Below, piece by piece: positions 1,369 through 62,515 of a DNA stretch of 64,000 bases. The stretch is from the NCBI RefSeq assembly GCF_014876185.1, contig NZ_JADALJ010000001.1, forward strand, positions 3,329,501 to 3,393,500, in the 5' to 3' direction. How positions within the stretch are numbered: position 1 is the first letter of the stretch; every line of letters starts with the position of its first letter. The stretch comes from Rufibacter sp. LB8. GTDB lineage: Bacteria; Bacteroidota; Bacteroidia; Cytophagales; Hymenobacteraceae. The translations under genes were made by a program, and so were the position numbers. The notes beneath the pieces are model-generated. The model was not told where the DNA came from. It saw only the letters and a list, made by a program, of their open reading frames with translations, and searched no databases.

Positions 1369-1409
1369 CCGTTTTGGGGCTCATTTTCAGAAATGAAGCC
1401 GAAAACGGG
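1369..1409. repeat. PAL palindrome copy 1
   Basis: Starts 3 bp after the permease stop codon. Arms CCGTTTTGGGGCTCATTT and its near-complement around a TTCAG centre. Member of the dispersed palindrome family described in the findings; may serve as a transcript 3' end. Confidence 0.85.
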
Positions 1410-1467
1410 AATTTTATATTCCAACCAATCTTCAAAGCCATTCCATTTCAAACCAGAATAGCGCAGT

Positions 1468-1755
1468 CCCTTCTCCCTCTGGGAGAAGGTTAGGATGAGG
1501 GCGAATTCATATTATAACACGCGCATTCCTGGTTTGTAGGGGCGTATTGCATACGCCCTACACATATCTGATTATATTCCATTTCCCATTGCTGGCCAAA
1601 GAAATCTGTGCACTCAATTTCAGGTGTTAATGCTTTCGCTTTAAGCTGACAGTATTACGGTGGCTAGCGCATTGGGCGTATGCAATACGCCCCTACAATT
1701 CAGGAATGCGTGAATAATTCATCCTCACCCAAGCCCTCTCCCAGAGGGAGAGGGA
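1468..1755. repeat. Nested inverted-repeat element (MITE-like), copy 1
   Basis: A 288-bp non-coding element made of three nested inverted repeats. The outer pair is CCTTCTCCCTCTGGGAGAAGG plus GGATGAGG near 1469-1500, answered at about 1721-1754. The middle pair is CGCATTCCTG / CAGGAATGCG. The inner pair is 1536-1558 and 1674-1696, each carrying a GGGCGTATTGCATACGCCC-type palindrome, with about 115 bp between them. The inner pair recurs at 62088-62212. No open frame is plausible inside. It fills most of the 500-bp gap before the SNF2 gene. Confidence 0.8.
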
Positions 1756-1767
1756 ATTTTTTGCATT

Positions 1768-1808
1768 CCCGTTTTCGGGCTCATTTTCGGAAACGGGGCC
1801 GAAAACGA
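1768..1808. repeat. PAL palindrome copy 2
   Basis: Arms CCCGTTTTCGGGCTCATTTTC and an imperfect partner containing GGGGCCGAAAACG. Lies between the nested element and the SNF2 gene, about 100 bp before the start codon. Confidence 0.75.
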
Positions 1809-1909
1809 GTATTGCTAACTTGAACAGAATCGGCTAAAATTTTTACTATTCTTTGTGGGCGTGCAAAGATTTTGTTGTACTTTCAAGATTGGGATAGTCA
1901 GACTCTACC

Positions 1910-4852
1910 ATGAAAGTATTCACCACGCAGCCTTTTCAAGTAGTTTATTCGCTCTTTGAGCATGAATACCTGGGCTATCTGTTTGAGTCTTTTGTGGTGC
2001 AAGTCAACTCTAAACGCCAGCTCACGCTCCAGCACCAGAACATCTCCAGCAAAAACGCCGCTGAGTTTTCGGCCCGCCTCAATGAAACCGACTATCAACT
2101 CATTGAGCTGATGGACCAGATTCAGCAGGACGCGGTGTTCAAGAAATTTGCCGTAAAGAAAACCACGCTGGCCGACTTCTTCTTCAAGACCTATGACCCC
2201 GCCAAAGGCGACAAGCTGCTGCAGGAAAGCATAGAGCATTACGTGCAGGGCCGCATGTCTAAGATTTTGGATTTGCTGCAGGACAAAATGGTGTTTGTGA
2301 TGGGCAAAGACGGCGAACCTACCTGGAAGAAGCTGCAGATGGCCACTGAAAAAGCCACGGTTTTATTCCACTTCCGGCGCAACGACGAAAACACCCACTA
2401 TTTCCCCACTATTAAGTACAAAGGTGAACTGCTGGAGTTTCAGTATAAAAATGCGGTGTTGGTCTGCAAAGAACCGGCCTGGCTGCTACTCAATGACGTG
2501 CTCTACAGTTTTGAGAAACAGGTAGATGGCAAGAAACTACAGCCGTTTCTGAACAAGAAATTCATTGTGGTGCCGCGCAACGTGGAGGAAAGCTATTACC
2601 GCAAGTTTGTGGCCCCGCTGGTAGAGCAGTTCGACGTGTTCGCCAAAGGTTTCCTGATAAAATCACAGCGCTTTGTGCCGCAGCCGCAGCTCCTGATTTC
2701 TGAACTGGCCATGGCAGAGCCCGCGCCTGTTTTGTTTTCTACCGTTGGCGAGGACGAAGAAGAGGAAAGGCCTAAGAGAGGTTCTTCAGACGGAGACAAA
2801 ATTGTGTTCCAGCTGCAGTTCCAGTACGGCGACTACAATTTGGGCACGCAGGAATCTAAGAAAATCAGTGTGAACGTGGAGAAAACCGAAGACTCTTACG
2901 TGTTTTACCGCCTGCACCGTGACCTGGAACTTGAGCGCTCGTTTCACCGGGAACTGGCCAGCCGTGGCCTGGAAATTAGAAACGGAAAAGCGGTGGTAGA
3001 CAAGCCCAAGGCGTTCGGGTGGCTGAATACTTACGCCAAGGCGCTGGAAGAACTGGGCTTCACGCTGCAGCAGAGCCAAACCGACAAGAACTATTTCATT
3101 GGCGAAACCAGCGTGAGCGTTGGCATCTCGGAGAGTAACGACTGGTTTGATATTTACGGAACGGTCAAATTCGGGCCGTATGAAATTCCGTTCATCAAGC
3201 TCCGGAACCACATTCTCACCAAGCGCCGCGAATACAAGCTGCCCAACGGCCAAATCGCCATCATCCCGGAGGAATGGTTTACGCAGTATCTGGAGCTCTT
3301 CGCGTTTTCTGAGGGCGAGGATGAACTGAAGCTTCGCAAGCACCACCTTTCTCTGGTAAGTGATTTGCAAAACGGAAACCTCGCCAGCGTGACCATGAGC
3401 CGCAAACTGGAGAAGCTCCGCGAGTTTGAGACCGTGGAAGACAAACCAATGCCGCTGGGCTTTAAAGGCGAACTCAGGCCGTACCAGAAAGCAGGCTATA
3501 ACTGGCTTCATTTTGTGCAGGAATTCCACTTCGGGGGTTGTCTGGCCGATGACATGGGCTTGGGGAAAACTGTGCAGACCTTGGCCATGCTGCAACACCG
3601 CAAAGAGAACGGCGCGCAAACGGCCTCATTGCTGGTCATGCCCACGTCTTTGATTTACAATTGGCTGGCCGAGGCCCAGAAGTTTACGCCGCAGCTTCGT
3701 ATTCTCACTTATACGGGCACGTACCGCAACAAAAGTGTGTCGCAGTTCAAGCACTATGACTTGATTCTGACCAGCTACGGAATTGTGCGCCTGGACCACC
3801 AAATCTTGCAGAAATACGTGTTTGACTACGTGATTCTGGACGAAAGCCAGGCCATCAAAAACCCCAATTCCAATACGTCCATCAGCATGCGCGAGCTCAA
3901 GTCCAAGCACCGCCTGATTTTGACCGGTACGCCCGTGGAGAACAGCACCCTGGATTTGTGGAGCCAGATGTCGTTCATCAATCCGGGCTTGTTGGGTACG
4001 CAGAATTTCTTCAAGAAAGAGTTTTTGCGGCCAATTGAAAAGCTGAAAGACGAACACAAAACCCGAAGACTGCACGCCTTGATAAAACCGTTCATTTTGC
4101 GCCGGCATAAAAGCCAGGTGGCCAAAGAACTTCCCGAGAAGATTGAGCACGTGACCTACTGCAAGATGACCGAAGAGCAGGAGCACGCCTACGAGGAAAC
4201 CAAGTCTTACTACCGCAACAAGATTCTGAAGAACATTGAGGAGCACGGCGCGGCCAAAAGTCAGTTCATGCTCTTGCAGGGCTTGATGAAACTCAGGCAG
4301 ATTGCCAACCACCCGCGCATGGCCGACCCTAACTCAGAAGCAGAATCTGGGAAGCTGGGCGAGGTGTTGCGTCTGACCAAGAACGTAGTCAGCAAAGGGC
4401 ACAAGGTGTTAATCTTCAGCCAATTTGTGAAGCATTTAGACATTGTGCGCGCCGCCCTGGATGAACGTAAAATCAAGTACGCCTATCTGGATGGTTCCAC
4501 CAAAGACCGCCAGGCGCAGGTCAACAACTTCCAGAATGACCCCAAACTGCCTATTTTTTTAATTTCGCTCAAAGCCGGGGGCGTGGGCCTCAACCTCACC
4601 GCCGCTGACTATGTGTTCATCCTAGACCCCTGGTGGAACCCCGCCGTAGAGGCCCAAGCCATTGACCGCGCCCACCGCATTGGGCAGCAGAACACCGTCT
4701 TCACCTACAAGTTCATCACTAAGAACAGCGTGGAAGAGAAAATCCTGGCCCTACAAGACAAGAAACTGGCTTTGGTGAATGACTTGATTTCTACGGATGA
4801 AGCCGTGATTAAAAAGCTCACCAAAGAAGATATTGAGAGTCTGTTGACGTAA
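1910..4852 (+). CDS. SNF2/Swi2-family DEAD-like ATP-dependent helicase
   Basis: A 980-residue RapA/SNF2-type protein. The N-terminal ~500 residues form a variable region with an acidic patch (GEDEEEERPKRG) near residue 285. The SNF2 ATPase lobe carries motif I DDMGLGKT at about 546 and motif II DESQ at about 643, followed by RLILTGTPVEN (motif III). The helicase C-terminal lobe ends with the motif V/VI region KAGGVGLNL and QAIDRAHRIGQ near 920. Such proteins translocate on double-stranded DNA and remodel protein-DNA or RNA polymerase complexes; the cellular target here is unknown. All helicase motifs are intact. The gene stands alone with a PAL palindrome 2 bp after its stop. Confidence 0.95.
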   Translation: MKVFTTQPFQVVYSLFEHEYLGYLFESFVVQVNSKRQLTLQHQNISSKNAAEFSARLNETDYQLIELMDQIQQDAVFKKFAVKKTTLADFFFKTYDPAKGDKLLQESIEHYVQGRMSKILDLLQDKMVFVMGKDGEPTWKKLQMATEKATVLFHFRRNDENTHYFPTIKYKGELLEFQYKNAVLVCKEPAWLLLNDVLYSFEKQVDGKKLQPFLNKKFIVVPRNVEESYYRKFVAPLVEQFDVFAKGFLIKSQRFVPQPQLLISELAMAEPAPVLFSTVGEDEEEERPKRGSSDGDKIVFQLQFQYGDYNLGTQESKKISVNVEKTEDSYVFYRLHRDLELERSFHRELASRGLEIRNGKAVVDKPKAFGWLNTYAKALEELGFTLQQSQTDKNYFIGETSVSVGISESNDWFDIYGTVKFGPYEIPFIKLRNHILTKRREYKLPNGQIAIIPEEWFTQYLELFAFSEGEDELKLRKHHLSLVSDLQNGNLASVTMSRKLEKLREFETVEDKPMPLGFKGELRPYQKAGYNWLHFVQEFHFGGCLADDMGLGKTVQTLAMLQHRKENGAQTASLLVMPTSLIYNWLAEAQKFTPQLRILTYTGTYRNKSVSQFKHYDLILTSYGIVRLDHQILQKYVFDYVILDESQAIKNPNSNTSISMRELKSKHRLILTGTPVENSTLDLWSQMSFINPGLLGTQNFFKKEFLRPIEKLKDEHKTRRLHALIKPFILRRHKSQVAKELPEKIEHVTYCKMTEEQEHAYEETKSYYRNKILKNIEEHGAAKSQFMLLQGLMKLRQIANHPRMADPNSEAESGKLGEVLRLTKNVVSKGHKVLIFSQFVKHLDIVRAALDERKIKYAYLDGSTKDRQAQVNNFQNDPKLPIFLISLKAGGVGLNLTAADYVFILDPWWNPAVEAQAIDRAHRIGQQNTVFTYKFITKNSVEEKILALQDKKLALVNDLISTDEAVIKKLTKEDIESLLT

Positions 4853-4853
4853 T

Positions 4854-4892
4854 GCGTTTTGGGCTTTGTTTGGGGAAATGAGACTCAAAACG
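4854..4892. repeat. PAL palindrome copy 3 (degenerate)
   Basis: Begins directly after the SNF2 stop codon. Arms GCGTTTTGGGCTTTGTTT and AAATGAGACTCAAAACG pair imperfectly, the most diverged copy so far. Confidence 0.6.
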
Positions 4893-5946: not shown

Positions 5947-6642
5947 ATGAAAAATTACTTAATCATAGGCGGCTCCTCCGGCATTGGTCAGGCATTAACC
6001 CAACTACTGGCTGCAGAAGGACACCGCGTTTTTGGTACCTATTTCCAAAATGAACCCCAAACTGGAAGTGCTGGTGTCACCTTTCATCCCTTAGACGTAT
6101 TGGCCGACACACTGGATCTTTCCTTTCTACCGGAAACGCTGGACGGCGTGGCGTACTGCCCGGGCAGTGTGAATTTGCTGCCCTTCGCGCGCATAAAACC
6201 AGAGGCGTTTGTGCAGGATTTCCAGTTGCAGGTGGGCGGGGCTATCAAAGTGTTGCAGGCGGTGCTGCCGCGGTTAAAGGCAGCCGGTTTTGCCTCGGTG
6301 GTGTTCTTCTCTACGGTGGCGGTGCAGACAGGCTTTACCTTTCATGCGCAGGTGGCAGCATCTAAAGGTGCTATTGAAGGACTGACCCGCGCTCTGGCAG
6401 CGGAGTTAGCGCCCACTATACGCGTGAACGCCGTGGCGCCCTCTATCACAGACACGCCCCTGGCCGCCAAATTCCTGAACACCGAAGACAAGAAACAAGC
6501 CAATGCCCAGCGCCACCCGCTCAAGAAAATTGGTTCGCCAGAAGACGTGGCTTCGGCCGCCTTGTTTCTATTAACCGATAAATCATCTTGGATGACCGGA
6601 CAAATTCTGGCGATAGATGGCGGCATGTCCAGCATCAGATAA
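5947..6642 (+). CDS. Short-chain dehydrogenase/reductase (SDR), atypical active site
   Basis: A 231-residue Rossmann-fold protein. The cofactor-binding glycine motif GGSSGIG is at residues 8-14 and the structural NAPS-like segment appears as NAVAPS. The catalytic serine is S122 and the lysine K140, but the position where the classical YxxxK tyrosine belongs holds valine (VAASK, V136). The C-terminal TGQILAIDGGMS is standard. SDRs reduce or oxidise carbonyl or alcohol groups with NAD(P)H; without the tyrosine the chemistry may differ or histidine H133 may substitute. The ATG at 5947 places the glycine motif at its normal distance. Substrate unknown. Confidence 0.9.
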   Translation: MKNYLIIGGSSGIGQALTQLLAAEGHRVFGTYFQNEPQTGSAGVTFHPLDVLADTLDLSFLPETLDGVAYCPGSVNLLPFARIKPEAFVQDFQLQVGGAIKVLQAVLPRLKAAGFASVVFFSTVAVQTGFTFHAQVAASKGAIEGLTRALAAELAPTIRVNAVAPSITDTPLAAKFLNTEDKKQANAQRHPLKKIGSPEDVASAALFLLTDKSSWMTGQILAIDGGMSSIR

Positions 6643-6685
6643 CAGCGCAATCAAAATTCTTTCAGATAAAGGCGCTTTGGTATTT

Positions 6686-6726
6686 CCCGTTTTCAGGCTC
6701 ATTTACAGAAATGAGCCCGAAAACGG
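6686..6726. repeat. PAL palindrome copy 4
   Basis: Lies 43 bp after the SDR stop. Arms CCCGTTTTCAGGCTCATTT and AAATGAGCCCGAAAACGG around ACAG. Confidence 0.8.
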
Positions 6727-6874
6727 AATTGCGTTTTCCTGGCGTTCCCTTCTTTATAAATAAAATCACTTAAACAGGCTAGCTCCTCTTGGCATTCTGA
6801 AAGGAAACAGTCATATTTAACATATTCTATATTTCATTCCGCGGTACACCTTCATCCATTTCAAACCACCTCCC

Positions 6875-7504
6875 ATGACCACCACCAAAAACCTCTTGCT
6901 GTGGCTTGCCTTTCTCTGCGTGTTTACGGCCTGCTCAGACAAAGAAGAAGACCCCGCGCCTGAAGAAACCACTACTGCCGCGGCCGGACTGGACTATTTC
7001 CCTACCACTGCGGGTTCTACCTGGTCTTATGAAGGGGATTTGACGTATTCTTACAAGTCATTGGGCACTAAAAAAGTCATCAATGGCAAATCATATACTG
7101 AGTTTGAGCAGAACCAGAACGGTACCATTAGTACAATTTATGTTTTCAAGGAAGCTGGTTCATATACCCTCTATACAGCTGTCGCTGGTGTAGGGAACAT
7201 TGAGTTGACCGTTTTAAAGGAGAACGAGCCCGAAGGCGGTAGCTGGAGCACCACTACTGTAATAAACGGTCTTACTACCAGGTACACGTATACACTTGTA
7301 AAAAAAGGTCTCACCAAAACCGTGTTGGGTAAGGAATATAAAAATGTGATTCAGGTAAAATTGGCGACGGTGGTACTTTTCCAGGGCATGGAGATTCCGT
7401 TTGACCAACCGTTCAATTACTACTTCGCCAAAGGGGTGGGCCAGATCATGTCTGAGTTAGGATCTTCAGGAACGGTTTCGCTCAAAAGCTATACCATCAA
7501 ATAA
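6875..7504 (+). CDS. Hypothetical lipoprotein
   Basis: A 209-residue lipoprotein: signal peptide 1-18, lipobox FTAC, then an acidic stretch (SDKEEDPAPEE) of the kind that acts as a surface-export signal for lipoproteins in Bacteroidetes. The mature part starts with DYFPTTAGSTWSYEG, a pattern seen in many secreted Bacteroidetes proteins of unknown role, and is rich in beta-strand-like alternation. No enzymatic motif is visible. It is the last gene before a strong bidirectional terminator shared with the ABC-F gene on the other strand. Confidence 0.8.
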   Translation: MTTTKNLLLWLAFLCVFTACSDKEEDPAPEETTTAAAGLDYFPTTAGSTWSYEGDLTYSYKSLGTKKVINGKSYTEFEQNQNGTISTIYVFKEAGSYTLYTAVAGVGNIELTVLKENEPEGGSWSTTTVINGLTTRYTYTLVKKGLTKTVLGKEYKNVIQVKLATVVLFQGMEIPFDQPFNYYFAKGVGQIMSELGSSGTVSLKSYTIK

Positions 7505-7512: not shown

Positions 7513-7557
7513 TTCCTGTTTTCGGCTTCATTTCTAGAAATGAAGCCGAAAACAGGA
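7513..7557. repeat. PAL palindrome copy 5 (perfect)
   Basis: Starts 8 bp after the lipoprotein stop. Arms CCTGTTTTCGGCTTCATTTC and its exact complement flank a TAG-type centre: a perfect hairpin whose GGCTTC/GAAGCC variant changed on both arms. Confidence 0.85.
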
Positions 7558-10960: not shown

Positions 10961-11002
10961 TCCGTTTTTGGCTTCGTTTTGGCAAATGAGGCTGAAAACG
11001 GA
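10961..11002. repeat. PAL palindrome copy 6
   Basis: Starts 5 bp after the FkbM stop. Arms TCCGTTTTTGGCTTCGTTTT and AAATGAGGCTGAAAACGGA with one internal mismatch region. Confidence 0.75.
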
Positions 11003-11613: not shown

Positions 11614-11652
11614 GCGTTTTCGGGCTCTGGATTGGAAATGGAGGCGGAAACG
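11614..11652. repeat. PAL palindrome copy 7 (variant)
   Basis: Variant with GCGTTTTCGGGCTCTGGATTGG and a weak right arm GGAGGCGGAAACGC. The same unusual variant occurs at 51278-51315 after the second composite block, so it belongs to that block. Confidence 0.65.
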
Positions 11653-13070: not shown

Positions 13071-13110
13071 CCGTTTTTGCCCTCATTTTCAGAAACGGGC
13101 CGTAAAACAC
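13071..13110. repeat. PAL palindrome copy 8
   Basis: Arms GGCCGTTTTTGCCCTCATTT and AACGGGCCGTAAAACACGG; pairing is imperfect. Lies in the long gap between rplU and nrdB. Confidence 0.6.
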
Positions 13111-14481: not shown

Positions 14482-14520
14482 GCGTTTTCGGGCTCATTTT
14501 CAGAAATGGAGCCAAAAACG
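14482..14520. repeat. PAL palindrome copy 9
   Basis: Starts 21 bp after the nrdB stop. Arms GCGTTTTCGGGCTCATTTTC and AAATGGAGCCAAAAACGC. Confidence 0.8.
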
Positions 14521-14746: not shown

Positions 14747-14803
14747 CCCGTTTTCGGGCTTGTTTTCAGAAATGAGGCCAAAAACAGAAACGAAGCCGAA
14801 AAC
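14747..14803. repeat. PAL palindrome copy 10 (with duplicated right arm)
   Basis: Arms CCGTTTTCGGGCTTGTTTTC and AAATGAGGCCAAAAACAG, followed at once by a second right arm ACGAAGCCGAAAACG. Looks like a duplication or fusion of two copies. Confidence 0.7.
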
Positions 14804-14925
14804 GTCTGGCAGTTGGCCAGGCAACCCGTACAGAGTAAACCTATGAAAATGCCTTCGGCTTTAGCCGGAGGAGGAAAAGCATTTGAATGGCTCCCCCCAT
14901 TCATCACCCATATAGATAGAAGCGT

Positions 14926-18283: not shown

Positions 18284-18320
18284 ACGTTTTCAGCCCCATT
18301 TCTGAAAATGAAGCCAAAAA
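18284..18320. repeat. PAL palindrome copy 11
   Basis: ACGTTTTCAGCCCCATTTC and AAAATGAAGCCAAAAAC; ends exactly at the stop codon of the Abi gene on the minus strand. Confidence 0.7.
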
Positions 18321-19223
18321 CTATTTAGACCATAAAACCTCGTGCTCCCAATTTTCATGGAACCCCATTCTGCTCAACGGTACCAATGGGTAAGAAACAG
18401 TTAATGCTTTGATTCTTGCAGCACAAGTATTTTCAGGGGCAATGGTCTGCAAGAGATAAAGCAAACAGCTAAGAAAGGCGTAGAGTTTGTGTGAAAGAAT
18501 ATCATCGTTAGCCAGCCAAGGCTTCAAGGGCTTGTTAGGTAGAGTAGGCTTAATTGTTAGAGTTCTATTCCACAGTCTACTATGATGCGCGCAGTTGTTT
18601 CGCACATACGTAATGCTTTGCATCCAGCTTTCTAATATATAGGGGCTCAAACCAAAATAAGCAGCAACGGCCTTCTTCTCTAGTGACATTTTCAAATTCC
18701 TAAAAATTTTAGAGAGTAGTCCCATGGTAGTCACTTCCAAAGACATCCAAGCCGGTGGACTTTGTGTTTGACTGTACTTATTACGGTAATGGTCAATGAA
18801 GACTTCATGGGAACGGTTCACTTCCTCCGCAAGCTTCTGTAAGTTCTGAGTTTGATGACTTGTATTGGTAAAAAGTGCAAGGTCTTCAAACCACCATGCG
18901 CCATGTACAATAGAAAGCTGGTAAATAATCTGTGTCCGTAGAGCCACTTCTATTTTCTCAATGGCATCAAAGATGATTAGACGTAATTCACGGTCAAATA
19001 CATATAAATCAAATACTTGGTCAAAGGTAGTACCCGGTAGAAATGTGTGATTGTTGTCCCCCTTCACCTGGAAAGGCAACATATAGGCACTTAACCGATA
19101 GTAGCTAACTGTAGAGAGACAATGATCTGCCTTGATACTGTCTGTAATCTTCAAGCCACGAGATTGCAACTTCTGAATCTGGTCAGCAATATGCAGTGGT
19201 GGTTTATTATAAGGAATAGACAT
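18321..19223 (-). CDS. Abi family protein (Abi_2/AbiD-AbiF, HEPN-type)
   Basis: About 300 residues. The N-terminus (PPLHIADQIQKLQSRGLKI) and VSYYRLSAYMLPF are typical of the Abi_2 family of phage-abortive-infection proteins. A HEPN nuclease motif R-x4-H is present as RNNCAH (R208, H213) in YVRNNCAHHSRLWNR. Such proteins are thought to cleave RNA and halt growth on phage attack. I prefer the ATG at 19223 over a TTG at 19235 because the longer start would overlap the U-tract of the upstream hairpin. Composition is AT-rich relative to neighbours, consistent with transfer. A hairpin with a U9 tract ends 11 bp before the start; see the RNA entry. Confidence 0.85.
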   Translation of the reverse strand: MSIPYNKPPLHIADQIQKLQSRGLKITDSIKADHCLSTVSYYRLSAYMLPFQVKGDNNHTFLPGTTFDQVFDLYVFDRELRLIIFDAIEKIEVALRTQIIYQLSIVHGAWWFEDLALFTNTSHQTQNLQKLAEEVNRSHEVFIDHYRNKYSQTQSPPAWMSLEVTTMGLLSKIFRNLKMSLEKKAVAAYFGLSPYILESWMQSITYVRNNCAHHSRLWNRTLTIKPTLPNKPLKPWLANDDILSHKLYAFLSCLLYLLQTIAPENTCAARIKALTVSYPLVPLSRMGFHENWEHEVLWSK

Positions 19224-19410: not shown

Positions 19411-19449
19411 CCGTTTTCGGCCCCATTTCCAGAAACGAGCCCGAAAACG
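19411..19449. repeat. PAL palindrome copy 12
   Basis: CCGTTTTCGGCCCCATTTC and GAAACGAGCCCGAAAACG. Between the Abi locus and the next plus-strand gene. Confidence 0.75.
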
Positions 19450-20387: not shown

Positions 20388-20428
20388 CCGTTTTGGGGCT
20401 CATTTCTAAAAATGAGCCCTAAAATGGC
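20388..20428. repeat. PAL palindrome copy 13
   Basis: GCCGTTTTGGGGCTCATTTC and AAATGAGCCCTAAAATGGC with a TAA-type centre, between convergent genes. Confidence 0.8.
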
Positions 20429-21356: not shown

Positions 21357-21395
21357 GCGTTTTGGGGCTCATTTCCAGAACGGAGGCCAAAAACA
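21357..21395. repeat. PAL palindrome copy 14
   Basis: GCGTTTTGGGGCTCATTTCC and ACGGAGGCCAAAAACAGG. Lies between divergent genes, a minority location. Confidence 0.7.
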
Positions 21396-24116: not shown

Positions 24117-24156
24117 TCTGTTTTTAGGCTCATTTCTGGAAATGAGCCCGAAAACG
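24117..24156. repeat. PAL palindrome copy 15
   Basis: CTGTTTTTAGGCTCATTTC and GAAATGAGCCCGAAAACG with a TGG centre, between the convergent regulator and paralog-1 genes. Confidence 0.75.
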
Positions 24157-26031: not shown

Positions 26032-26070
26032 CCGTTTTCGGGCTCATTTCCAGAAATGAGGGCAAAAACG
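26032..26070. repeat. PAL palindrome copy 16
   Basis: CCGTTTTCGGGCTCATTTCC and GAAATGAGGGCAAAAACG, between divergent paralogs 3 and 4. Confidence 0.75.
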
Positions 26071-26633: not shown

Positions 26634-26679
26634 TTTCTGTTTTTGCCTTCATTTCCAGAATTGAGGCCTAAAACGGAAA
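26634..26679. repeat. PAL palindrome copy 17
   Basis: TTTCTGTTTTTGCCTTCATTT and GAATTGAGGCCTAAAACGG, 68 bp after the paralog-4 stop. TGCCTTC pairs with GAGGCC. Confidence 0.7.
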
Positions 26680-30513: not shown

Positions 30514-30555
30514 TTCTGTTTTTGGCTTCGTTTCTGAAAATGAGCCCGAAAACGG
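30514..30555. repeat. PAL palindrome copy 18
   Basis: CTGTTTTTGGCTTCGTTTCTG and AAATGAGCCCGAAAACGG; centre reads TTTCTGAAAA, the reverse orientation of most copies. Confidence 0.75.
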
Positions 30556-31742: not shown

Positions 31743-31785
31743 TCCCGTTTTCGGGCTCATTTTCAGAAATGAGGCTCAAAACGGA
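31743..31785. repeat. PAL palindrome copy 19
   Basis: TCCCGTTTTCGGGCTCATTTTC and AAATGAGGCTCAAAACGGA, 42 bp after the RlpA stop. Confidence 0.8.
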
Positions 31786-33793: not shown

Positions 33794-33833
33794 TCCGTTT
33801 TCAGGCTCATTTCCAGAAACGAGGCCAAAAACG
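33794..33833. repeat. PAL palindrome copy 20
   Basis: CCGTTTTCAGGCTCATTTCC and GAAACGAGGCCAAAAACG, 10 bp past the stop of the minus-strand hypothetical gene. Confidence 0.75.
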
Positions 33834-34418: not shown

Positions 34419-34459
34419 GCGTTTTGGGGCTCATTTCTGAAAACGAAGCCAAAAACGCA
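34419..34459. repeat. PAL palindrome copy 21
   Basis: GCGTTTTGGGGCTCATTTC and AAAACGAAGCCAAAAACGC, reverse-type centre TTTCTGAAAA. Confidence 0.75.
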
Positions 34460-35559: not shown

Positions 35560-36644
35560 TTCTCCATTTTGGCAGGGTACTTAGCCCAGGCACTGGCCGA
35601 GAACACCAGCACACCTGCAATCACGGCGCAGCTGGCCAGAAAGCCTTCAGAAAACGAAGGTCTTAAAGTAGATTTCTGCACCACGCGGGTGATGCGGCTC
35701 AGCAGGGAGCGGCGGCGGCCAGAAAACGCCATAGCCATACGGGGCGATTTTTCATTCTTTTTCATGGTGAGTTCTTCTAAGGTGGTTAAGGCATAGGCAT
35801 AAGTGAGCGAATCGCCGCAGAGAGCAATGGCCAGGTCATCACAGGCGTGCTCGCGCTCGGTGCGCACGCAGTCTGAGATCCACCACACGGCCGGGTGAAA
35901 GAAAAACAAGGTTTCCACCAGGCTCTGCAACAGGTTCATGAGGTAGTCGCGGCGGTGCACGTGGGCCAGTTCATGGGCCAGCACAGCTTCAATCTGCGCC
36001 GTGGAAAGGCCGGTTAAGGCACCAATGGGCAGCAGCACAATGGGTTTGAAATGACCGATCACCAAGGGCACTTTCACCATGGCAGACTCCACCACGCGCA
36101 CCAGCTGCGTAATGCCCAGCTGGCGGCTCAGTTCTTGCGCTTTGTGCTGCCAGGCCTCGGGTACGGGACGGGTTCTGTAGGTCTTGAGCCGCTGCACGTA
36201 CGCCCAGCCACCAAGCAAACGCAGCCCCATCATGACCATGCCCAGAAGCCAGAGCGCCACCACGGCCGGCAAATGCTGGTTGAAATACGCCTGGCTCTGC
36301 GCCCAGACAGAAGCGAAATAGCCGCTGGAAGCCTCAGCATCTGGCAAACTCACGGTGGCGGTAACACTTCCCGCAGCACCTTCGGCGTGGTTCATCAGAT
36401 AGGCGCCGCCATTCGGTTCATACACTTGTAGAAATGTGATAACGGCAAGACCCAGCAACACCACCAGCCCGGCCCCGGCTACGTAGTAGCGCGTGGCCGC
36501 CGAATGCCGGTGCATGAGCGCCAACACCGCCGCCAGCACCACGGCAAGAAGCGCGCCTTGCCACAAAGAGTGCAGCAGGGTCCAGCCCAGGGCGTGCATG
36601 ACGGCCTGCGGCAACAGATCAAAGACGAGGTTCTGAGGAGTCAT
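35526..36644 (-). CDS. M56 family (BlaR1/MecR1-like) membrane metallopeptidase, possibly truncated by frameshift
   Basis: A 372-residue protein with several membrane helices near the N-terminus, the zinc-peptidase motif HELAHVHRRD near residue 223, and a further helix near the C-terminus (SCAVIAGVLVFSASAWA). In beta-lactam signalling this family senses a ligand outside and cleaves the BlaI repressor inside; in Bacteroidetes the signal is usually unknown. The last ten residues (WSLRSRLPPP) look like out-of-frame sequence, because the -1 frame continues sensibly (VVTEKQTAPAIKDS). The start overlaps the repressor gene by 26 bp. Confidence 0.88.
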   Translation of the reverse strand: MTPQNLVFDLLPQAVMHALGWTLLHSLWQGALLAVVLAAVLALMHRHSAATRYYVAGAGLVVLLGLAVITFLQVYEPNGGAYLMNHAEGAAGSVTATVSLPDAEASSGYFASVWAQSQAYFNQHLPAVVALWLLGMVMMGLRLLGGWAYVQRLKTYRTRPVPEAWQHKAQELSRQLGITQLVRVVESAMVKVPLVIGHFKPIVLLPIGALTGLSTAQIEAVLAHELAHVHRRDYLMNLLQSLVETLFFFHPAVWWISDCVRTEREHACDDLAIALCGDSLTYAYALTTLEELTMKKNEKSPRMAMAFSGRRRSLLSRITRVVQKSTLRPSFSEGFLASCAVIAGVLVFSASAWAKYPAKMEKWSLRSRLPPP

Positions 36645-37812: not shown

Positions 37813-37855
37813 AAGCGTTTTTGGCTTCATTTTCAGAAATGAGCCCCAAAACGCC
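37813..37855. repeat. PAL palindrome copy 22
   Basis: GCGTTTTTGGCTTCATTTTC and AAATGAGCCCCAAAACGC, 14 bp after the barrel-protein stop. Confidence 0.8.
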
Positions 37856-38796: not shown

Positions 38797-38835
38797 CCGT
38801 TTTTGCCCTCGTTTCCAGAAATGAGCCCGAAAACA
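38797..38835. repeat. PAL palindrome copy 23
   Basis: GCCGTTTTTGCCCTCGTTTCC and GAAATGAGCCCGAAAACAG, between convergent arfB and DUF481 genes. Confidence 0.75.
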
Positions 38836-39765: not shown

Positions 39766-39806
39766 GCCGTTTTGGGGCTCATTTCCAGAAATGAGCCCCA
39801 AAACGA
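39766..39806. repeat. PAL palindrome copy 24
   Basis: CGTTTTGGGGCTCATTTCC and GAAATGAGCCCCAAAACG, near-perfect with the GGGGCTC/GAGCCCC variant on both arms. Confidence 0.85.
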
Positions 39807-41508: not shown

Positions 41509-42330
41509 ATGGAAAATGCCAAAGGAACCCTCATTGCCCTGGGCGGCGGCGATGACGACGGATTGATTCAACTCATCAGGTCAGAGATCTGCAGCATAGA
41601 CTCGCACATAGAAGTGATCACTACCGCCACGCTGGAACCCATGGAATCTGGCCAGGCCTACAAAGAAGCCTTTGAGGAACTGGGCTGCAGCAGCGTGCGC
41701 TTCATGCACATTGATGAAGACAACCTGGCCGACAAACCAGAGAACCTGGCCCGCATAGCCCGCGCCGAAGTCATTTTTTTCACCGGCGGCAACCAACTCA
41801 GGTTAAAGGAATTCTTGAGCGGCACCCAACTGCACCAACTCATGCAAAAGCGGTTCCAGGAAGAGGAAATCACCATTTCGGGTACCAGCGCCGGCGCGGC
41901 GGCCATGTCAAACCGCATGATTTATGAAGGCTACGGTTCTTATTCTCTCATGAAAGGCGAAGTAAAAACCACCGACGGCCTCTCTTTTATTGAGAACGTG
42001 TTTATTGACACGCATTTCACCGAGCGCGGCCGGTTTGGCCGGTTGGCGCACGCGGTCTCTAAAAGGCCCGAGTTTGTGGGCATTGGCTTAGGCGAGGAAA
42101 CGGGCATCATCATCAAGAACGGCAACCACGTAGAGGTGTTTGGTACCGGTGTGGTCACCATCATGGACGGCTCCAAGGTGCGCTACTCTAATTTAAGCGA
42201 AGTGGACGAAGGCGACCCCATTGCCATTGAGAACCTCACCATGCACCTGCTGGTGGAAGGCCACGAATACTGCCTCACAGACCGAAGCTTCCGCAAACTT
42301 TCCCAACAGAAAAAGAACGTACAAGCCTAG
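41509..42330 (+). CDS. Cyanophycinase-like peptidase (S51 family)
   Basis: A 273-residue serine peptidase. The nucleophile is in ISGTSAGAAAMSN (serine near residue 127), with the acidic triad partner regions FFTGGNQLRL and DTHFTERGRFGRL, all typical of cyanophycinase. The enzyme cleaves the arginine-aspartate polymer cyanophycin into beta-Asp-Arg dipeptides. No cyanophycin synthetase gene is in the window, so it may act on imported polymer or on a related isopeptide. Start ATG at 41509. A PAL palindrome follows by 9 bp. Confidence 0.9.
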   Translation: MENAKGTLIALGGGDDDGLIQLIRSEICSIDSHIEVITTATLEPMESGQAYKEAFEELGCSSVRFMHIDEDNLADKPENLARIARAEVIFFTGGNQLRLKEFLSGTQLHQLMQKRFQEEEITISGTSAGAAAMSNRMIYEGYGSYSLMKGEVKTTDGLSFIENVFIDTHFTERGRFGRLAHAVSKRPEFVGIGLGEETGIIIKNGNHVEVFGTGVVTIMDGSKVRYSNLSEVDEGDPIAIENLTMHLLVEGHEYCLTDRSFRKLSQQKKNVQA

Positions 42331-42338
42331 ATTGAATT

Positions 42339-42382
42339 TCCTGTTTTCGGGCTCATTTTCAGAAATGAGCCCGAAAACGGGA
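42339..42382. repeat. PAL palindrome copy 25 (perfect)
   Basis: TCCTGTTTTCGGGCTCATTTTC and GAAATGAGCCCGAAAACGG, the closest match to the family consensus. Confidence 0.85.
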
Positions 42383-42445
42383 AGTTGAAATTCAAAATAC
42401 TAATGGCAACTTTTTCCCTTGAGTATTGCCCTAACGGGAGTTTTA

Positions 42446-42600
42446 CGCATTTCGTCCCCCTTTGAAGGGGGTAGGGGGATGATGACTCTTGCAGATGTTG
42501 GGATTTCCCGAGAATCATTTTCTTTTAGAATTTCTTTAGCTGATGGTTTTCCAAGCGTCCTTTTCATCCCCCTACCCCCTTCAAAGGGGGACGAAATGCG
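42446..42600. repeat. MITE-like element with perfect 37-bp terminal inverted repeats
   Basis: Bases 42446-42482 and 42564-42600 are exact complements (37 bp, containing CCCCCTTTGAAGGGGGTAGG), enclosing 81 bp without a gene. Each end also holds the short palindrome CCCCTTTGAAGGGG. Related elements: decayed copy at 14584-14727, single ends at 11129-11165 and 53712-53750. No target-site duplication is evident. Confidence 0.85.
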
Positions 42601-42660
42601 TGTTATTCCTGGGAAATAAAGATGTTCTATTGCGCGGAATCTGGCCAAGAATAAAAGAAA

Positions 42661-42709
42661 ATTCCCGTTTTCGGGCTCATTTCTGGAAATGAAGCCGAAA
42701 ACGGGAATT
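42661..42709. repeat. PAL palindrome copy 26 (perfect)
   Basis: ATTCCCGTTTTCGGGCTCATTTC and GAAATGAAGCCGAAAACGGGAAT, stem of about 21 bp with one mismatch, 25 bp past the stop of the minus-strand flavoprotein gene. Confidence 0.85.
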
Positions 42710-42734
42710 CCTTGAAAGCATCAGTCTATAAAAC

Positions 42735-43628
42735 TCAGCACCTGAATTCCTGTTGCAGTTCCATGTTGATGGCCACGCCGGCTTTGGTGCCTTCGGCGGC
42801 GGCTACAATCACTAATTGCATGTCACGGGCGGCATCGCCGGCTACGTAGAGGCCGGGTACGTTGGTCTGCTGGTGCTTGTAGGTTTTGACTACGCCTTTG
42901 CTGGTGAAGTCGCAGTTGAGTTGCCGGGCCAGGTCTGAGTGCTGGTCAGAACCGGTGGCGAAGAACAGGGCCTCGCGGTTTTCTACGGTGCCGTTCTTGA
43001 GCACAATGCGTTTGAGTTCGGTGCCTTCGCCCTCTAAACGTTCAATGGCGGTGGTGCAGATGTCTACTTTGTTGCGGGCCAGCAGGTCACGGTCTTCGCG
43101 GGTGAGTTTGTTGGTGCCGTCTGTGAAGAGCATTACGTCACTGCTCCAGGTTTTCAGGGACAAAGACAATCCTATGGCTTTCCGGTCAAGGCCGTAGGCG
43201 GCCAACGGCTTGTTCTTCGACTCAAAACCGTCACAGTACGGGCAGTGGTGAATGCTGGTACCGTAAAAAGGTTCGGCGCCCTCTAGTTTGGGCCAGCGGT
43301 CGCAGAGGCCGGTGGCCAGCAGCACTTTGCGCGAAAGGTAGACTTGTTCGTCCTCGTCATAAGCCTGGAACATATCGCCTTCCTTGGTGATTTTCATGAT
43401 GCGCTTCTGCTTGAAAGCCACCTCGTACTTGACCAAGTCTTCGCGGGCCAGTTGCAGGAACTCCTGGGGCGGGGTGCCGTCACGGGTAATGAACCCGTTC
43501 ATAGCGTGCGAATAGGAGTTTCTATAGACCCCGGTGTCAAACAGCGCCACTTTGCGCATGCAGCGGCCCAGCAGCATGGCCGCGCTCAGGCCGGCGGGTC
43601 CGCCCCCTACAATAAGAACATCATACAT
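42735..43628 (-). CDS. Thioredoxin reductase-like NAD(P)/FAD-dependent oxidoreductase
   Basis: A 297-residue flavoprotein. FAD binds to VGGGPAGLSAA (residues 7-17) and the closing motif VPGLYVAGDAARDMQLV. The redox pair is present as HHCPYCDGFE near residue 130, where classical thioredoxin reductases have CATC. It lacks an obvious NADPH GxGxxA motif, so its electron source is uncertain; related Bacteroidetes and Firmicutes proteins act as ferredoxin- or bacillithiol-type disulfide reductases. It stands alone with a palindrome after it. Confidence 0.88.
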   Translation of the reverse strand: MYDVLIVGGGPAGLSAAMLLGRCMRKVALFDTGVYRNSYSHAMNGFITRDGTPPQEFLQLAREDLVKYEVAFKQKRIMKITKEGDMFQAYDEDEQVYLSRKVLLATGLCDRWPKLEGAEPFYGTSIHHCPYCDGFESKNKPLAAYGLDRKAIGLSLSLKTWSSDVMLFTDGTNKLTREDRDLLARNKVDICTTAIERLEGEGTELKRIVLKNGTVENREALFFATGSDQHSDLARQLNCDFTSKGVVKTYKHQQTNVPGLYVAGDAARDMQLVIVAAAEGTKAGVAINMELQQEFRC

Positions 43629-47148: not shown

Positions 47149-47189
47149 CTCGTTTTGGGCTCATTTTCAGAATTGAGCCCAAAAACGGG
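47149..47189. repeat. PAL palindrome copy 27
   Basis: TCGTTTTGGGCTCATTTTCAG and AATTGAGCCCAAAAACGGGA, 70 bp after twin 1. Confidence 0.8.
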
Positions 47190-47739: not shown

Positions 47740-47780
47740 AAACAGGAAGAGGCGACCTTTGGGGTCGCCTCTTCCTGTTT
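47740..47780. terminator. Bidirectional terminator, twin 2 / polA
   Basis: AACAGGAAGAGGCGACC / GGTCGCCTCTTCCTGTT perfect stem between convergent genes. Confidence 0.85.
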
Positions 47781-47787: not shown

Positions 47788-47830
47788 TCCTGTTTTCGGG
47801 CTCATTTCCAGAAATGAGCCCGAAAACGCC
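47788..47830. repeat. PAL palindrome copy 28 (perfect)
   Basis: CCTGTTTTCGGGCTCATTTCC and GAAATGAGCCCGAAAACG. Its last base coincides with the polA stop. Confidence 0.85.
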
Positions 47831-50779: not shown

Positions 50780-50820
50780 TGCATTTTCGGGCTCGTTTCC
50801 GGAAATGAAGCCGAAAACGA
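50780..50820. repeat. PAL palindrome copy 29
   Basis: TTGCATTTTCGGGCTCGTTTCC and GGAAATGAAGCCGAAAACGAG, upstream of polA and just before composite block B. Confidence 0.75.
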
Positions 50821-51277: not shown

Positions 51278-51315
51278 GCGTTTTCGGGCTCTGGATTGGA
51301 AATGGCGGCGAAACT
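51278..51315. repeat. PAL palindrome copy 30 (variant)
   Basis: GCGTTTTCGGGCTCTGGATTGG and a decayed right arm GGCGGCGAAAC; the same variant as copy 7, in the same place relative to its composite block. Confidence 0.6.
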
Positions 51316-51424: not shown

Positions 51425-51465
51425 TGCGTTTTCGGGCTCATTTCCGGAAACGAGGCCAAAAACGA
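51425..51465. repeat. PAL palindrome copy 31
   Basis: GCGTTTTCGGGCTCATTTCC and GGAAACGAGGCCAAAAACG, before the 2TM gene. Confidence 0.75.
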
Positions 51466-54607: not shown

Positions 54608-54649
54608 GTCGTTTTGGTGCTCATTTCACGAATCTAAGCCAAAAACGGG
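54608..54649. repeat. PAL palindrome copy 32
   Basis: CGTTTTGGTGCTCATTTCACG and GAATCTAAGCCAAAAACGGG with weak pairing; between the cyclase start and the esterase-like gene's terminator. Confidence 0.6.
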
Positions 54650-57048: not shown

Positions 57049-57090
57049 TCCGTTTTCGGCCTCGTTTCTGGAAATGAAGCCGAAAACGGA
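57049..57090. repeat. PAL palindrome copy 33
   Basis: TCCGTTTTCGGCCTCGTTTC and GAAATGAAGCCGAAAACGGA with a TGG centre, 20 bp past the pentapeptide gene stop (minus strand). Confidence 0.8.
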
Positions 57091-59669: not shown

Positions 59670-59712
59670 ACCCGTTTTGGGGCTCATTTCCAGAAACGAG
59701 CCCCAAAACGGG
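59670..59712. repeat. PAL palindrome copy 34
   Basis: CCCGTTTTGGGGCTCATTTCC and GAAACGAGCCCCAAAACGGG, nearly perfect GGGGCTC variant. Confidence 0.85.
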
Positions 59713-59741
59713 TTTGCGTAAAAGGTATAAACGCTAGTGAA

Positions 59742-60653: not shown

Positions 60654-60697
60654 GGCCAGCTAATTGTTGTTTGCAAAAGTTAACCGGTTTGTGGCCT

Positions 60698-60741
60698 TTC
60701 TGTTTTGGGGCTCATTTCCAGAAACAAGGCCTAAAACAGGA
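60698..60741. repeat. PAL palindrome copy 35
   Basis: TTCTGTTTTGGGGCTCATTTCC and GAAACAAGGCCTAAAACAGG, 4 bp past the stop of the MBL gene (minus strand). Confidence 0.75.
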
Positions 60742-60745
60742 ATTT

Positions 60746-62087: not shown

Positions 62088-62212
62088 GTAGGGGCGTATT
62101 GCATACGCCCTGCGCATTCCCGGTCAATTGATGCTCGTAATTGAACTGTATTTTAGAAATGACTTGGAACATTACTGCTGCCACCGCAAGGGCGTATGCA
62201 ATACGCCCCTAC
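62088..62212. repeat. Nested inverted-repeat element (MITE-like), copy 2
   Basis: Ends 62088-62110 and 62190-62212 are the same inverted pair as 1536-1558 and 1674-1696 (GTAGGGGCGTATTGCATACG type). The interior is about 80 bp and unlike the first copy, so only the ends are conserved. Confidence 0.8.
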
Positions 62213-62282
62213 ATGAAATGCGTGGGCAAATGAAAAAAAACATCTTGAGCCTTCTTAGGAGACGATCTGCGTGCCCCATGCT

Positions 62283-62331
62283 GTTCGGGATTTCTAATCC
62301 CGAACCACTCTGTCGGGGATTTACTAATCCC
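62283..62331. repeat. Twin hairpins (CGGGATT / AATCCCG type)
   Basis: GTTCGGGATT / AATCCCGAAC at 62283-62305 and CGGGGATT / AATCCCCG at 62312-62331, two related short palindromes in tandem. Confidence 0.6.
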
Positions 62332-62428
62332 CGTTGCTGGTCTATTGGGAAATCACATGCACGGGGGGATTGATAAATCTGAAAGTGTGATAGAGCGTTA
62401 AATATATCTCAATCATTATTAAAGTACT

Positions 62429-62464
62429 CCCTCACCCTAACCCTCTCCCAGGGGGAGAGGGGAT
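62429..62464. repeat. CCCTCACCCTAACCCTCTCCC repeat
   Basis: CCCTAACCCTCTCCC and GGGGGAGAGGG; same type as the outer arms of the element at 1468-1755. Confidence 0.65.
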
Positions 62465-62473
62465 TTATCAGGT

Positions 62474-62515
62474 TTCCCGTTTTTGGGCTCGTTTCTGGAA
62501 ATGAAGCCGAAAACT
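62474..62515. repeat. PAL palindrome copy 36
   Basis: TTCCCGTTTTTGGGCTCGTTTC and GAAATGAAGCCGAAAACTG with a TGG centre, 13 bp past the hemW stop (minus strand). Confidence 0.8.

What the first reader, a model, noticed from the sequence alone, without database searches (positions are those of the whole stretch)
1369..62515. A high-copy family of short covarying palindromes (PAL), about 36 copies in 64 kb
Seen directly: about 36 copies of a 38-45 bp palindrome with arms near GTTTTCGGGCTCATTTC / GAAATGAGCCCGAAAAC. Nearly all lie outside genes, and in about 25 cases the repeat starts or ends within 70 bp of a stop codon, sometimes 2-5 bp away. REP-like and terminator-like repeats exist in other bacteria, but this consensus, density and 3'-end preference stand out. 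It could be a lineage-specific terminator or mRNA-stabilising element spread by an unlinked transposase, or a nuclease or chaperone binding site. No RAYT-type transposase was seen in this window.
Basis: partly seen in the sequence, partly recalled or inferred. Interest (0 to 1): 0.8.

Follow-up and report, generated by a model that had tools for sequence, protein, structure and literature searches.

The report
Species-dialect palindromes at gene ends
Roughly two thousand similar short DNA palindromes sit between genes, mostly just behind gene ends, in one bacterium; related species carry them in largely the same places but often spelled differently, which suggests a conserved job and a partner molecule that changes with them.

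Summary
The palindromes are real. A position model finds 37 in the window and 397 in 904 kb of the same genome, about 2,000 per chromosome, none in reversed sequence. The genome is a Rufibacter. They lie between genes, preferring convergent gaps and the first 70 bp after stop codons. In this genome the arms do NOT covary within a copy, except at one core pair and the flanks. Half-site spacing is rigid.

Resident RAYT transposases are flanked by other palindromes, and a relative without PF01797 genes has the same PAL density, so RAYT spread is not supported. A conjugative element and a 155-kb contig are nearly PAL-free.

The unexpected part is comparative. Eight Rufibacter genomes carry 4.25-6.0 PALs per 10 kb, several with clearly different consensus. 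Two species at 82% DNA identity agree at 56 of 57 orthologous gaps. Sampled genomes outside Rufibacter and Sabulibacter have 0 or 1 match.

My reading: a site at transcription-unit ends, recognised by a co-evolving factor, probably at DNA level. Factor, maintenance and DNA-versus-RNA are inferred.

The parts
1371..1406 (.). PAL core
   Evidence: PWM 66.1 bits, 5 bp after a stop
1771..1806 (.). PAL core
   Evidence: PWM 62.7
4856..4891 (.). PAL core, degenerate
   Evidence: PWM 30.4, 3 bp after a stop
6028..6063 (.). PAL-like, inside a called gene, doubtful
   Evidence: PWM 23.5
6689..6724 (.). PAL core
   Evidence: PWM 65.4, 46 bp after a stop
7518..7553 (.). PAL core, arms perfectly complementary
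   Evidence: PWM 65.0; 24-nt arms 100% complementary
10964..10999 (.). PAL core
   Evidence: PWM 52.2, 8 bp after a stop
11616..11651 (.). PAL variant (CTCTGGAT form)
   Evidence: PWM 32.3
13073..13108 (.). PAL core, degenerate
   Evidence: PWM 34.8
14484..14519 (.). PAL core; counterpart at a similar place in G009 and G013
   Evidence: PWM 48.6
14750..14785 (.). PAL core with an extra third arm to about 14804; counterpart at a similar place in G009 and G013
   Evidence: PWM 59.1
18286..18321 (.). PAL core
   Evidence: PWM 40.0
19413..19448 (.). PAL core
   Evidence: PWM 52.2
20390..20425 (.). PAL core
   Evidence: PWM 54.3, 23 bp after a stop
21359..21394 (.). PAL core
   Evidence: PWM 56.3
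24120..24155 (.). PAL core
   Evidence: PWM 62.6, 41 bp after a stop
26034..26069 (.). PAL core
   Evidence: PWM 57.8
26639..26674 (.). PAL core
   Evidence: PWM 59.9
30518..30553 (.). PAL core; counterpart in the orthologous gap of G009 and G013
   Evidence: PWM 62.5
31747..31782 (.). PAL core
   Evidence: PWM 65.5
33797..33832 (.). PAL core; counterpart in the orthologous gap of G009, G013, G006
   Evidence: PWM 58.7
34421..34456 (.). PAL core
   Evidence: PWM 54.6
37817..37852 (.). PAL core; counterpart in the orthologous gap of G009, G013, G006
   Evidence: PWM 50.6
38799..38834 (.). PAL core; PAL in the orthologous gap of five relatives
   Evidence: PWM 59.0
39769..39804 (.). PAL core, perfect arms; PAL elsewhere in the orthologous gap of several relatives
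   Evidence: PWM 58.9
42343..42378 (.). PAL core, convergent gap
   Evidence: PWM 70.6, 12 bp after a stop
42667..42702 (.). PAL core, convergent gap
   Evidence: PWM 74.8, 32 bp after a stop
47151..47186 (.). PAL core, left arm altered at the foot
   Evidence: PWM 50.7
47792..47827 (.). PAL core, perfect consensus, 2 bp after the polA stop
   Evidence: PWM 66.9; polA by Pfam
50783..50818 (.). PAL core
   Evidence: PWM 58.2
51280..51315 (.). PAL variant (CTCTGGAT form)
   Evidence: PWM 19.4
51428..51463 (.). PAL core
   Evidence: PWM 59.3
54611..54646 (.). PAL core, degenerate
   Evidence: PWM 27.8
57052..57087 (.). PAL core
   Evidence: PWM 68.0, 23 bp after a stop
59674..59709 (.). PAL core
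   Evidence: PWM 62.9, 32 bp after a stop
60702..60737 (.). PAL core
   Evidence: PWM 59.4, 8 bp after a stop
62479..62514 (.). PAL core
   Evidence: PWM 61.0, 13 bp after a stop

Best explanation
PAL is a Rufibacter/Sabulibacter-specific family of dyad-symmetric sites, about 2,000 on this chromosome. Each has two 17-20-bp half-sites at a fixed 2-bp spacing, placed mainly at the 3' ends of transcription units. Shown: between two relatives at 82% DNA identity they stay at orthologous places almost without exception, the own genome shares places with its relatives more than gap type and length predict, and several species use a clearly different consensus. Inferred: the sites are kept by selection or by a conversion-like drive, and are read by a trans-acting factor whose preference has changed between species. 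I think it most likely that a dimeric protein reads the site as double-stranded DNA (or an extruded cruciform), marking or insulating the ends of transcription units in both directions. Nothing found here points to a resident RAYT transposase as the cause.
For: Position. G009 and G013 (82.2% identity over aligned blocks): of 57 orthologous gaps 33 have PAL in both, 23 in neither, 1 in one only; median offset 1 bp in 28 single-copy pairs; 24.0 shared expected after stratifying by gap type and length, 0 of 1000 shuffles reach 33. Own genome against seven relatives pooled (150 comparisons): both 77, neither 48, discordant 25; 68.8 expected, 0 of 3000 shuffles. The 60-bp flanks of 10 own-G009 counterparts are hardly alike (0.55/0.53 against 0.50/0.48 control). 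Dialects. Species models differ at similar density, 4.25-6.0 per 10 kb in 8 genomes (models trained on the same stretches, thresholds set above reversed sequence). Cores of 10 own-G009 counterparts are no more alike than non-counterparts (25.1 against 24.8 of 36). Geometry. 349 of 350 partnered half-sites have exactly the 2-nt spacer; 12 of 362 are solitary, against 10 hits in the reversed control. DNA level. In tandem gaps (215 copies, six genomes) no clear excess of G-U over A-C mismatches on the sense strand (243 against 215, p 0.21) and no difference in sense/antisense folding energy (p 0.38). In tandem gaps PAL lies beyond a canonical terminator in 14 of 20 pairings. 56 of 386 copies lie in divergent gaps. 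Transcription-unit ends. PAL in 79 of 95 convergent, 135 of 260 tandem and 40 of 97 divergent gaps of 60-1000 bp; within 100 bp after the stop in 1 of 104 genes with a tandem gap under 30 bp, but 95 of 236 with one of 100 bp or more. Same order of gap types in six genomes.
Against: No binding factor was found or sought, and no expression data were available. Sabulibacter copies covary strongly at the outer free pairs (0.90-0.96 matched against 0.46-0.70 shuffled, 50 of 81 copies), and two low-copy Rufibacter genomes also do, which favours a hairpin over a simple pair of half-sites; subfamilies could give part of this. In convergent gaps G-U exceeds A-C (141 against 93, p 0.002) and sense folding is slightly stronger (p 0.012). 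Of the seven single-species stratified comparisons with the own genome only own-G006 is below 5% (25 of 1000 shuffles; own-G009 168, own-G013 244, the rest 240-1000); the pool is significant, but its rows reuse own gaps. The centre dinucleotide is oriented with the gene in own tandem gaps (CA 88, TG 45, p 0.0002), which a purely symmetric DNA site would not need; in G009 plus G013 it is 43:33, not significant. PAL density was not established for G001, G004, G007, G010 and G015 (models failed, drifted or were not made).
Confidence: 0.42

Rival explanations
1. RNA-level 3'-end hairpin: PAL is transcribed and folds at transcript ends, as an unusual terminator without a U-tract or as a 3' exonuclease block, with a conserved loop-proximal sequence read by an RNA-binding factor.
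For: 3'-end preference; predicted RNA fold of own copies median -19.8 kcal/mol against -7.6 for base-shuffled sequence, and slightly better than arm-swapped copies (mean -20.9 against -19.3); strong arm covariation in Sabulibacter and in two Rufibacter genomes; compensatory double changes in the core between 52 orthologous copy pairs 21 against 9.0 expected, none above expectation in the flanks (10 against 10.0), mostly from one species pair; weak G-U excess in convergent gaps and centre orientation following the gene.
Against: No U-tract after the stem and no exclusion or association with canonical terminators (tandem 15 of 125 gaps without PAL, 16 of 135 with; convergent 7 of 16 and 31 of 79). 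No clear sense-strand pairing preference in tandem gaps. Core arms independent within copies in the own genome. A loop length that practically never varies is unusual for a simple hairpin.
Confidence: 0.27
2. REP-like non-autonomous mobile family: copies were spread by a past or present transposase, and the dialects arose by repeated amplification of new master copies.
For: REP-like size, copy number and location; PF01797 hits in 15 of 16 Rufibacter genomes; PALs lie 127 and 422 bp from the L032 RAYT gene, 402 bp from L033's, and one overlaps the called start of L036's (one PAL per 2.2 kb is the background); a RAYT segment 97-99% identical between G000 and G009 carries a shared PAL; copies are oriented (centre CA/TG in 293 of 386).
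Against: RAYT genes are flanked by other palindromes. Skeleton PALs (3 mismatches or fewer) within 600 bp of 25 RAYT genes of relatives are 0.67 per kb against 0.27-0.30 elsewhere, about what their extra intergenic DNA could give (that normalisation is my estimate, not computed). G013 has no PF01797 hit but normal PAL density. No guide tetranucleotide, no target duplication, 56 of 57 concordant gaps, near absence from a conjugative element and a 155-kb contig.
Confidence: 0.2
3. Uptake-sequence-like signal: copies accumulate at permissive places because DNA carrying the species' own motif is preferentially taken up and recombined.
For: Species dialects with thousands of copies, intergenic placement and depletion in acquired DNA match published features of Neisseria DUS (PMC3630211 and PMC7371117, passages).
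Against: Half-sites almost never occur alone. No PilT-family (type IV pilus retraction ATPase) match over the cut-off in any of 50 genomes of the family, 11 of them Rufibacter; other competence genes were not searched.
Confidence: 0.05

Closest known systems
REP / BIME / REPIN elements with RAYT (PMC3733652, PMC6006769, PMC8049555; passages seen)
   Same: Short high-copy intergenic palindromes, preferring convergent and tandem gaps and 3' ends; species-specific sequences.
   Different: No GTAG/CGTC or other unpaired tetranucleotide at one foot; resident RAYTs are flanked by other palindromes; normal density in a genome without a PF01797 hit; places conserved between species at 82% DNA identity.
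Subclass 2.6 (group 5) RAYT 'atypical secondary structures' of Bacteroidetes (PMC6006769, passages)
   Same: Same phylum. L034's RAYT fits the published 2.6 motifs; L032's and L033's differ at one residue of the Y motif, L035's is degenerate (my comparison).
   Different: The palindromes beside these genes are unlike PAL and give only 1-10 BLAST hits per probe in the 864-kb sample.
DNA uptake sequence dialects of Neisseriaceae (PMC3630211, PMC7371117; passages)
   Same: Thousands of copies, one dominant dialect per species, depleted in acquired islands, inverted pairs near gene ends.
   Different: PAL is obligately a rigid dyad of long degenerate half-sites; no PilT-family hit over the cut-off in 11 Rufibacter genomes.
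Canonical bidirectional intrinsic terminators of the same genomes (e.g. behind polA)
   Same: Intergenic hairpin near gene ends.
   Different: Those have A-rich and T-rich edges round a GC-rich stem and copy-specific sequence; PAL has T on the 5' arm, A on the 3' arm, a shared sequence, and occurs independently of them.

Membership tests
REP element (GTAG/CGTC-tagged) | Unpaired conserved tetranucleotide at one foot of the hairpin | tested here: not met
   Oriented PWM of 386 copies shows only near-symmetric, palindromic flank signal
REP element (GTAG/CGTC-tagged) | Cognate repeats flank the resident RAYT gene (REPtron) | tested here: not met
   RAYT genes L032, L033/L034, L035 and L036 are flanked by other inverted repeats; PALs near three of them at about background spacing and no clear enrichment near 25 RAYT genes of relatives
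REP element (GTAG/CGTC-tagged) | Intergenic, mostly convergent/tandem, near 3' ends | tested here: met
REPIN / active non-autonomous transposon | Presence/absence polymorphism or scattered positions between relatives | tested here: not met
   56 of 57 orthologous gaps concordant between the species G009 and G013; strains of one species were not compared
MITE | Target-site duplication | tested here: not met
   Equal flank k-mers clearly exceed shuffled controls only at offsets 2-4 (e.g. k 4 at offset 3: 18 against 7.2), where the self-complementary AATT-like flank explains it (the explanation is mine)
Intrinsic terminator | GC-rich stem followed by a T-run on the transcribed strand | tested here: not met
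   PWM flanks; independence from canonical terminators, crude detector
DNA uptake sequence | Single sites abundant on their own | tested here: not met
   12 of 362 half-sites solitary, 10 hits in the reversed control
DNA uptake sequence | Competence pilus (PilT family as proxy) | tested here: not met
   0 of 50 family genomes (11 Rufibacter) over the cut-off; one sub-cut-off Rufibacter match
DNA uptake sequence | Uptake or transformation bias | not testable with these tools
   Needs an experiment
Known RNA family (Rfam 15) | Match at the gathering score | tested here: not met
   0 matches in the window; 22 matches below gathering, mostly miRNA hairpins, in the 461 bases 42300-42760
Dimeric DNA-binding-protein site | Rigid half-site spacing, half-sites varying independently round one consensus | tested here: met
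   Own genome, pair 4 excepted; but covarying pairs in Sabulibacter
Dimeric DNA-binding-protein site | A protein that binds it | not tested
   No candidate was sought

The most novel reading that the evidence does not exclude
A genome-wide system of about 2,000 punctuation sites at transcription-unit ends, read by a fast-evolving genus-specific factor, whose recognition sequence has been rewritten across the site family in several Rufibacter species while the sites kept their places: a naturally replicated co-evolution of a regulator with its whole set of sites.
Probability: 0.3. Interest if true: 0.87.

Novelty: new variant of a known kind. Interest (0 to 1): 0.66.

Why it matters
High-copy palindromes are usually explained as mobile REPs. 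Here copies keep their places between species while the intergenic DNA round them diverges, yet the shared spelling changes between species. That needs either selection at thousands of sites or a drive that rewrites them, and it makes the old question of what such palindromes do testable in a genus with several natural 'dialects'. PAL-poor stretches may also flag acquired DNA in these genomes.

Tried and rejected
RAYT mobilisation: tested by gene presence, flanking repeats and distribution; not supported. Canonical terminator: no U-tract, no association. Compensatory RNA pairing in the own genome: arm-shuffle, G-U/A-C and sense/antisense energy tests mostly negative. Target duplications: none credible. 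Replication-strand orientation: centre CA on the leading direction 168:127, p 0.02, origin and terminus placed by eye from GC skew; the gene effect is larger (tandem 89:46; co-directional 50:20, head-on 39:26). Uptake sequence: solitary half-sites and PilT. Rfam: nothing credible. The G015 iteration of the species model drifted to weak matches and G015 was left out of later counts; the models for G004, G007 and G001 stopped at 2-3 copies, so their density is unknown. Literature: 'Rufibacter' with 'palindrom' gave 2 papers, unrelated by title and abstract start; 'Hymenobacteraceae' + 'interspersed' + 'palindrom' gave 0; others (3 papers; 11 papers) showed no description of this family in titles and abstract starts. 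The library holds open-licence papers only.

Weak points: gene calls come from my own codon-usage caller (about 76% coding) and miss some genes; the terminator detector is crude; the 864-kb sample is about 18% of the genome; comparisons pooled over relatives are not independent; the skeleton pattern would miss palindromes spelled otherwise in other genera.

Full report
WHERE IT IS. The window is positions 3,329,501-3,393,500 of the main contig of a 4.75-Mb, two-contig genome. Its polA is 90-93% identical in protein to ten named Rufibacter loci, 91% to Sabulibacter ruber and 74% to Adhaeribacter rhizoryzae; the species was not identified. A plasmid search with a piece of contig 2 found only partial matches, in five Hymenobacter and one Adhaeribacter record.

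THE OBSERVATION. The half-arm matches 55 times in the window (0.9 expected) and 1,493 + 1,495 times in the genome, against 7 + 5 for the reversed pattern. I trained a symmetric position model on the window plus 40 stretches of 20 kb taken at even steps (864 kb). It finds 387 copies at 14 bits or more and none in reversed sequence. With two more stretches and a cut-off of 12 bits it finds 397 in 904 kb, 4.39 per 10 kb, about 2,000 on the main contig. The own consensus is tttCCGTTTTcGGgCTCaTTTc, a 2-bp centre, and its reverse complement. The window holds 37 copies.

ANATOMY. The half-sites have a fixed spacing: 349 of 350 partnered half-sites have 2 nt between them, one has 1 nt. Solitary half-sites (12 of 362) are about as many as reversed-control hits (10). 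The centre is CA or TG in 293 of 386 copies, so most copies have an orientation. Beyond position -8 the flanks carry little sequence conservation, but pairing continues: flank pairs -9 to -4 match more than shuffled (z 7.3), -12 to -7 (z 4.1) and -15 to -10 (z 2.4) too, -20 to -15 not. There is no credible target duplication.

COVARIATION. In this genome the two arms of a copy are no more alike than arms of different copies (3.74 against 3.67 mismatches in 17 pairs; 3.33 against 3.32 for 293 copies oriented by the centre). Pair 4 is the main exception (match 0.56 against 0.40 expected). G009 and G013 also show none overall, G003 and G002 a little (z 2.0 and 2.1). In contrast, 50 listed Sabulibacter copies match at the four outer free pairs in 0.90-0.96 against 0.46-0.70 shuffled, and the listed copies of G001 (21 of 21) and G002 (50 of 62) also covary. 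Those copies were selected by a skeleton pattern that fixes other positions; own copies selected by the same pattern still do not covary overall (174 copies, 2.80 against 2.60).

GENE CONTEXT. In the 864-kb sample: 105 copies in convergent gaps (3.26 per kb of gap), 177 in tandem (1.68), 56 in divergent (1.36), 28 inside called genes, 20 at stretch edges. Of gaps of 60-1000 bp, 79 of 95 convergent, 135 of 260 tandem and 40 of 97 divergent hold a PAL. In tandem gaps 123 are nearer the stop and 54 nearer the start. 187 of 347 intergenic copies lie within 70 bp after a stop, 140.6 expected. Genes with a tandem gap under 30 bp have one within 100 bp of the stop in 1 of 104 cases, genes with a gap of 100 bp or more in 95 of 236. 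Five relatives show the same order of densities, convergent over tandem over divergent. In the own tandem gaps the centre reads CA on the gene's sense strand 88 times, TG 45 times.

NOT A RAYT REP. The genome has six PF01797 hits: one IS200-size and five RAYT-like. L034's protein fits the subclass 2.6 motifs of PMC6006769 (passages), L032's and L033's differ at one residue of the Y motif, L035's is degenerate, and L036's fits subclass 2.4 (my comparison). These genes are flanked by inverted repeats of other sequence; four probes from L032, L034 and L035 (two) give 8, 10, 1 and 2 BLAST hits in the 864-kb sample. PALs do lie 127 and 422 bp from L032's gene, 402 bp from L033's and at the called start of L036's, none within the L035 locus; one per 2.2 kb is the background. 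Skeleton PALs (3 mismatches or fewer) number 20 in 30 kb next to 25 RAYT genes of relatives, 10 in 36 kb further out, 64 in 210 kb of polA loci; the excess is modest and those flanks contain more intergenic DNA. PF01797 hits are found in 15 of 16 genus genomes; the sixteenth, G013, has none but 124 PALs in 292 kb.

COMPARATIVE RESULT. A skeleton pattern is found in 16 of 16 Rufibacter genomes (14 to 940 copies; reversed control 0), in Sabulibacter ruber (81) but not Adhaeribacter rhizoryzae (0), in 6 of 134 other sampled genomes of the family with one copy each (that sample seems not to include Sabulibacter) and in none of 147 other genomes drawn from the order. Species models trained on fetched stretches give 4.25-6.0 copies per 10 kb in eight genomes, with different consensus: own GTTTTcGGgCTCaTTTc, G009 and G013 GTTTTTgGcCTgTTTTc, G003 (R. 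immobilis by its polA locus) GTTTaGgGgCtgTTTTt, G006 GTTTT.ggcCtGTTTT. The models of G002, G014 and G012 are weaker and resemble one another, so 'one dialect per species' is firm only for part of the genus. The centre is mostly CA/TG in the own genome (295 of 397), G009 (66 of 89) and G013 (78 of 124), most often CC/GG in G003 (21 of 40), and mixed in the other four. Of 57 orthologous gaps between G009 and G013, 56 agree, median offset 1 bp, at 82.2% DNA identity over aligned blocks. Between the own genome and seven relatives, 125 of 150 comparisons agree; shared presence exceeds a shuffle stratified by gap type and length (77 against 68.8, 0 of 3000), though of the single-species comparisons only own-G006 is below 5%. 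Ten own-G009 counterparts keep place but not sequence (core identity 25.1 against 24.8 for non-counterparts), while G009-G013 counterparts still share ancestry (30.4 against 27.3, 31 pairs). Shared place is thus firm for the close pair and moderate for the own genome.

ACQUIRED DNA LACKS PAL. A 20-kb stretch at 3.40 Mb with TraG and TraJ of a Bacteroidetes conjugative element and a TraM just under the cut-off (3 of 8 proteins matched) has none; contig 2 (155 kb) has 5.

DNA OR RNA. Evidence is mixed. Tandem gaps show no clear G-U over A-C preference on the sense strand (243 against 215, p 0.21) and no sense/antisense energy difference (n 215, p 0.38). Convergent gaps show a small one (141 against 93, p 0.002; energy p 0.012). 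Canonical terminators are independent of PAL, and 14 of 20 tandem pairings have PAL beyond the terminator. Between 52 orthologous copy pairs of four species pairs, compensatory double changes in the core number 21 against 9.0 expected and in the flanks 10 against 10.0; 22 of the 31 come from G002-G014.

MECHANISM. Shown: rigid dyad, 3'-end placement, conserved places, different consensus in several species, absence from a conjugative element. Inferred: a trans-acting reader, maintenance by selection or drive, and boundary, termination or insulation at transcription-unit ends. I favour double-stranded DNA recognition by a dimer because of rigid spacing, independent half-sites and lack of a clear strand preference; an RNA hairpin is the nearest rival.

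KNOWN KINDS. In location and size PAL works like REP elements, but it fails two tested REP features (tagged foot, RAYT-flanking). Dialects resemble those of Neisseria uptake sequences (PMC3630211, passages), but solitary sites and a PilT-family match over the cut-off are missing.

Noticed in passing
G000:C1 about 3,391,980-3,432,600 (window end, L065, L145): A PAL-free stretch of about 40 kb (6.5 kb of it not fetched) that includes a Bacteroidetes-type conjugative element (TraG, TraJ, TraM-like); PAL gaps may serve as markers of acquired DNA.
   Followed up: partly
L034:1239-1950 and 2752-3207 against L101 (G009): A RAYT segment 97-99% identical between two species whose polA is only 85% identical in DNA, carrying a PAL in the G000 spelling inside G009: looks like recent transfer.
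   Followed up: partly
window 62280-62337: A copy of the palindrome-rich stretch found upstream of the L034 RAYT gene (91.5% over 59 bp), a different repeat family from PAL.
   Followed up: no
L079 about 6535-6820 and 7045-7165 (query 1536-1819 and 2045-2166): Other dispersed short repeats, some nearly identical between Rufibacter species (stretches of about 40 bp at 96-100%), in contrast to the species-specific PAL.
   Followed up: no
window 11616-11651 and 51280-51315: Two copies of a PAL variant with CTCTGGATTGGAAATGG in place of the usual centre, not palindromic in the middle.
   Followed up: no
window 14750-14804: A composite PAL with three arms 18 bp apart, suggesting rearrangement between half-sites.
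   Followed up: no
window 47740-47780 and polA loci of relatives: Bidirectional A/T-edged terminator-like hairpin behind polA, also present behind polA in most relatives listed; in the window PAL lies between the polA stop and it.
   Followed up: partly
G000:C2 (155,127 bp, L137-L144): Second contig almost free of PAL (5 copies); probably plasmid-like, a multicopper oxidase region is similar to Hymenobacter plasmids.
   Followed up: partly
window 35526-36644: BlaR1/M56-like membrane protein (match below the curated cut-off); not pursued.
   Followed up: no
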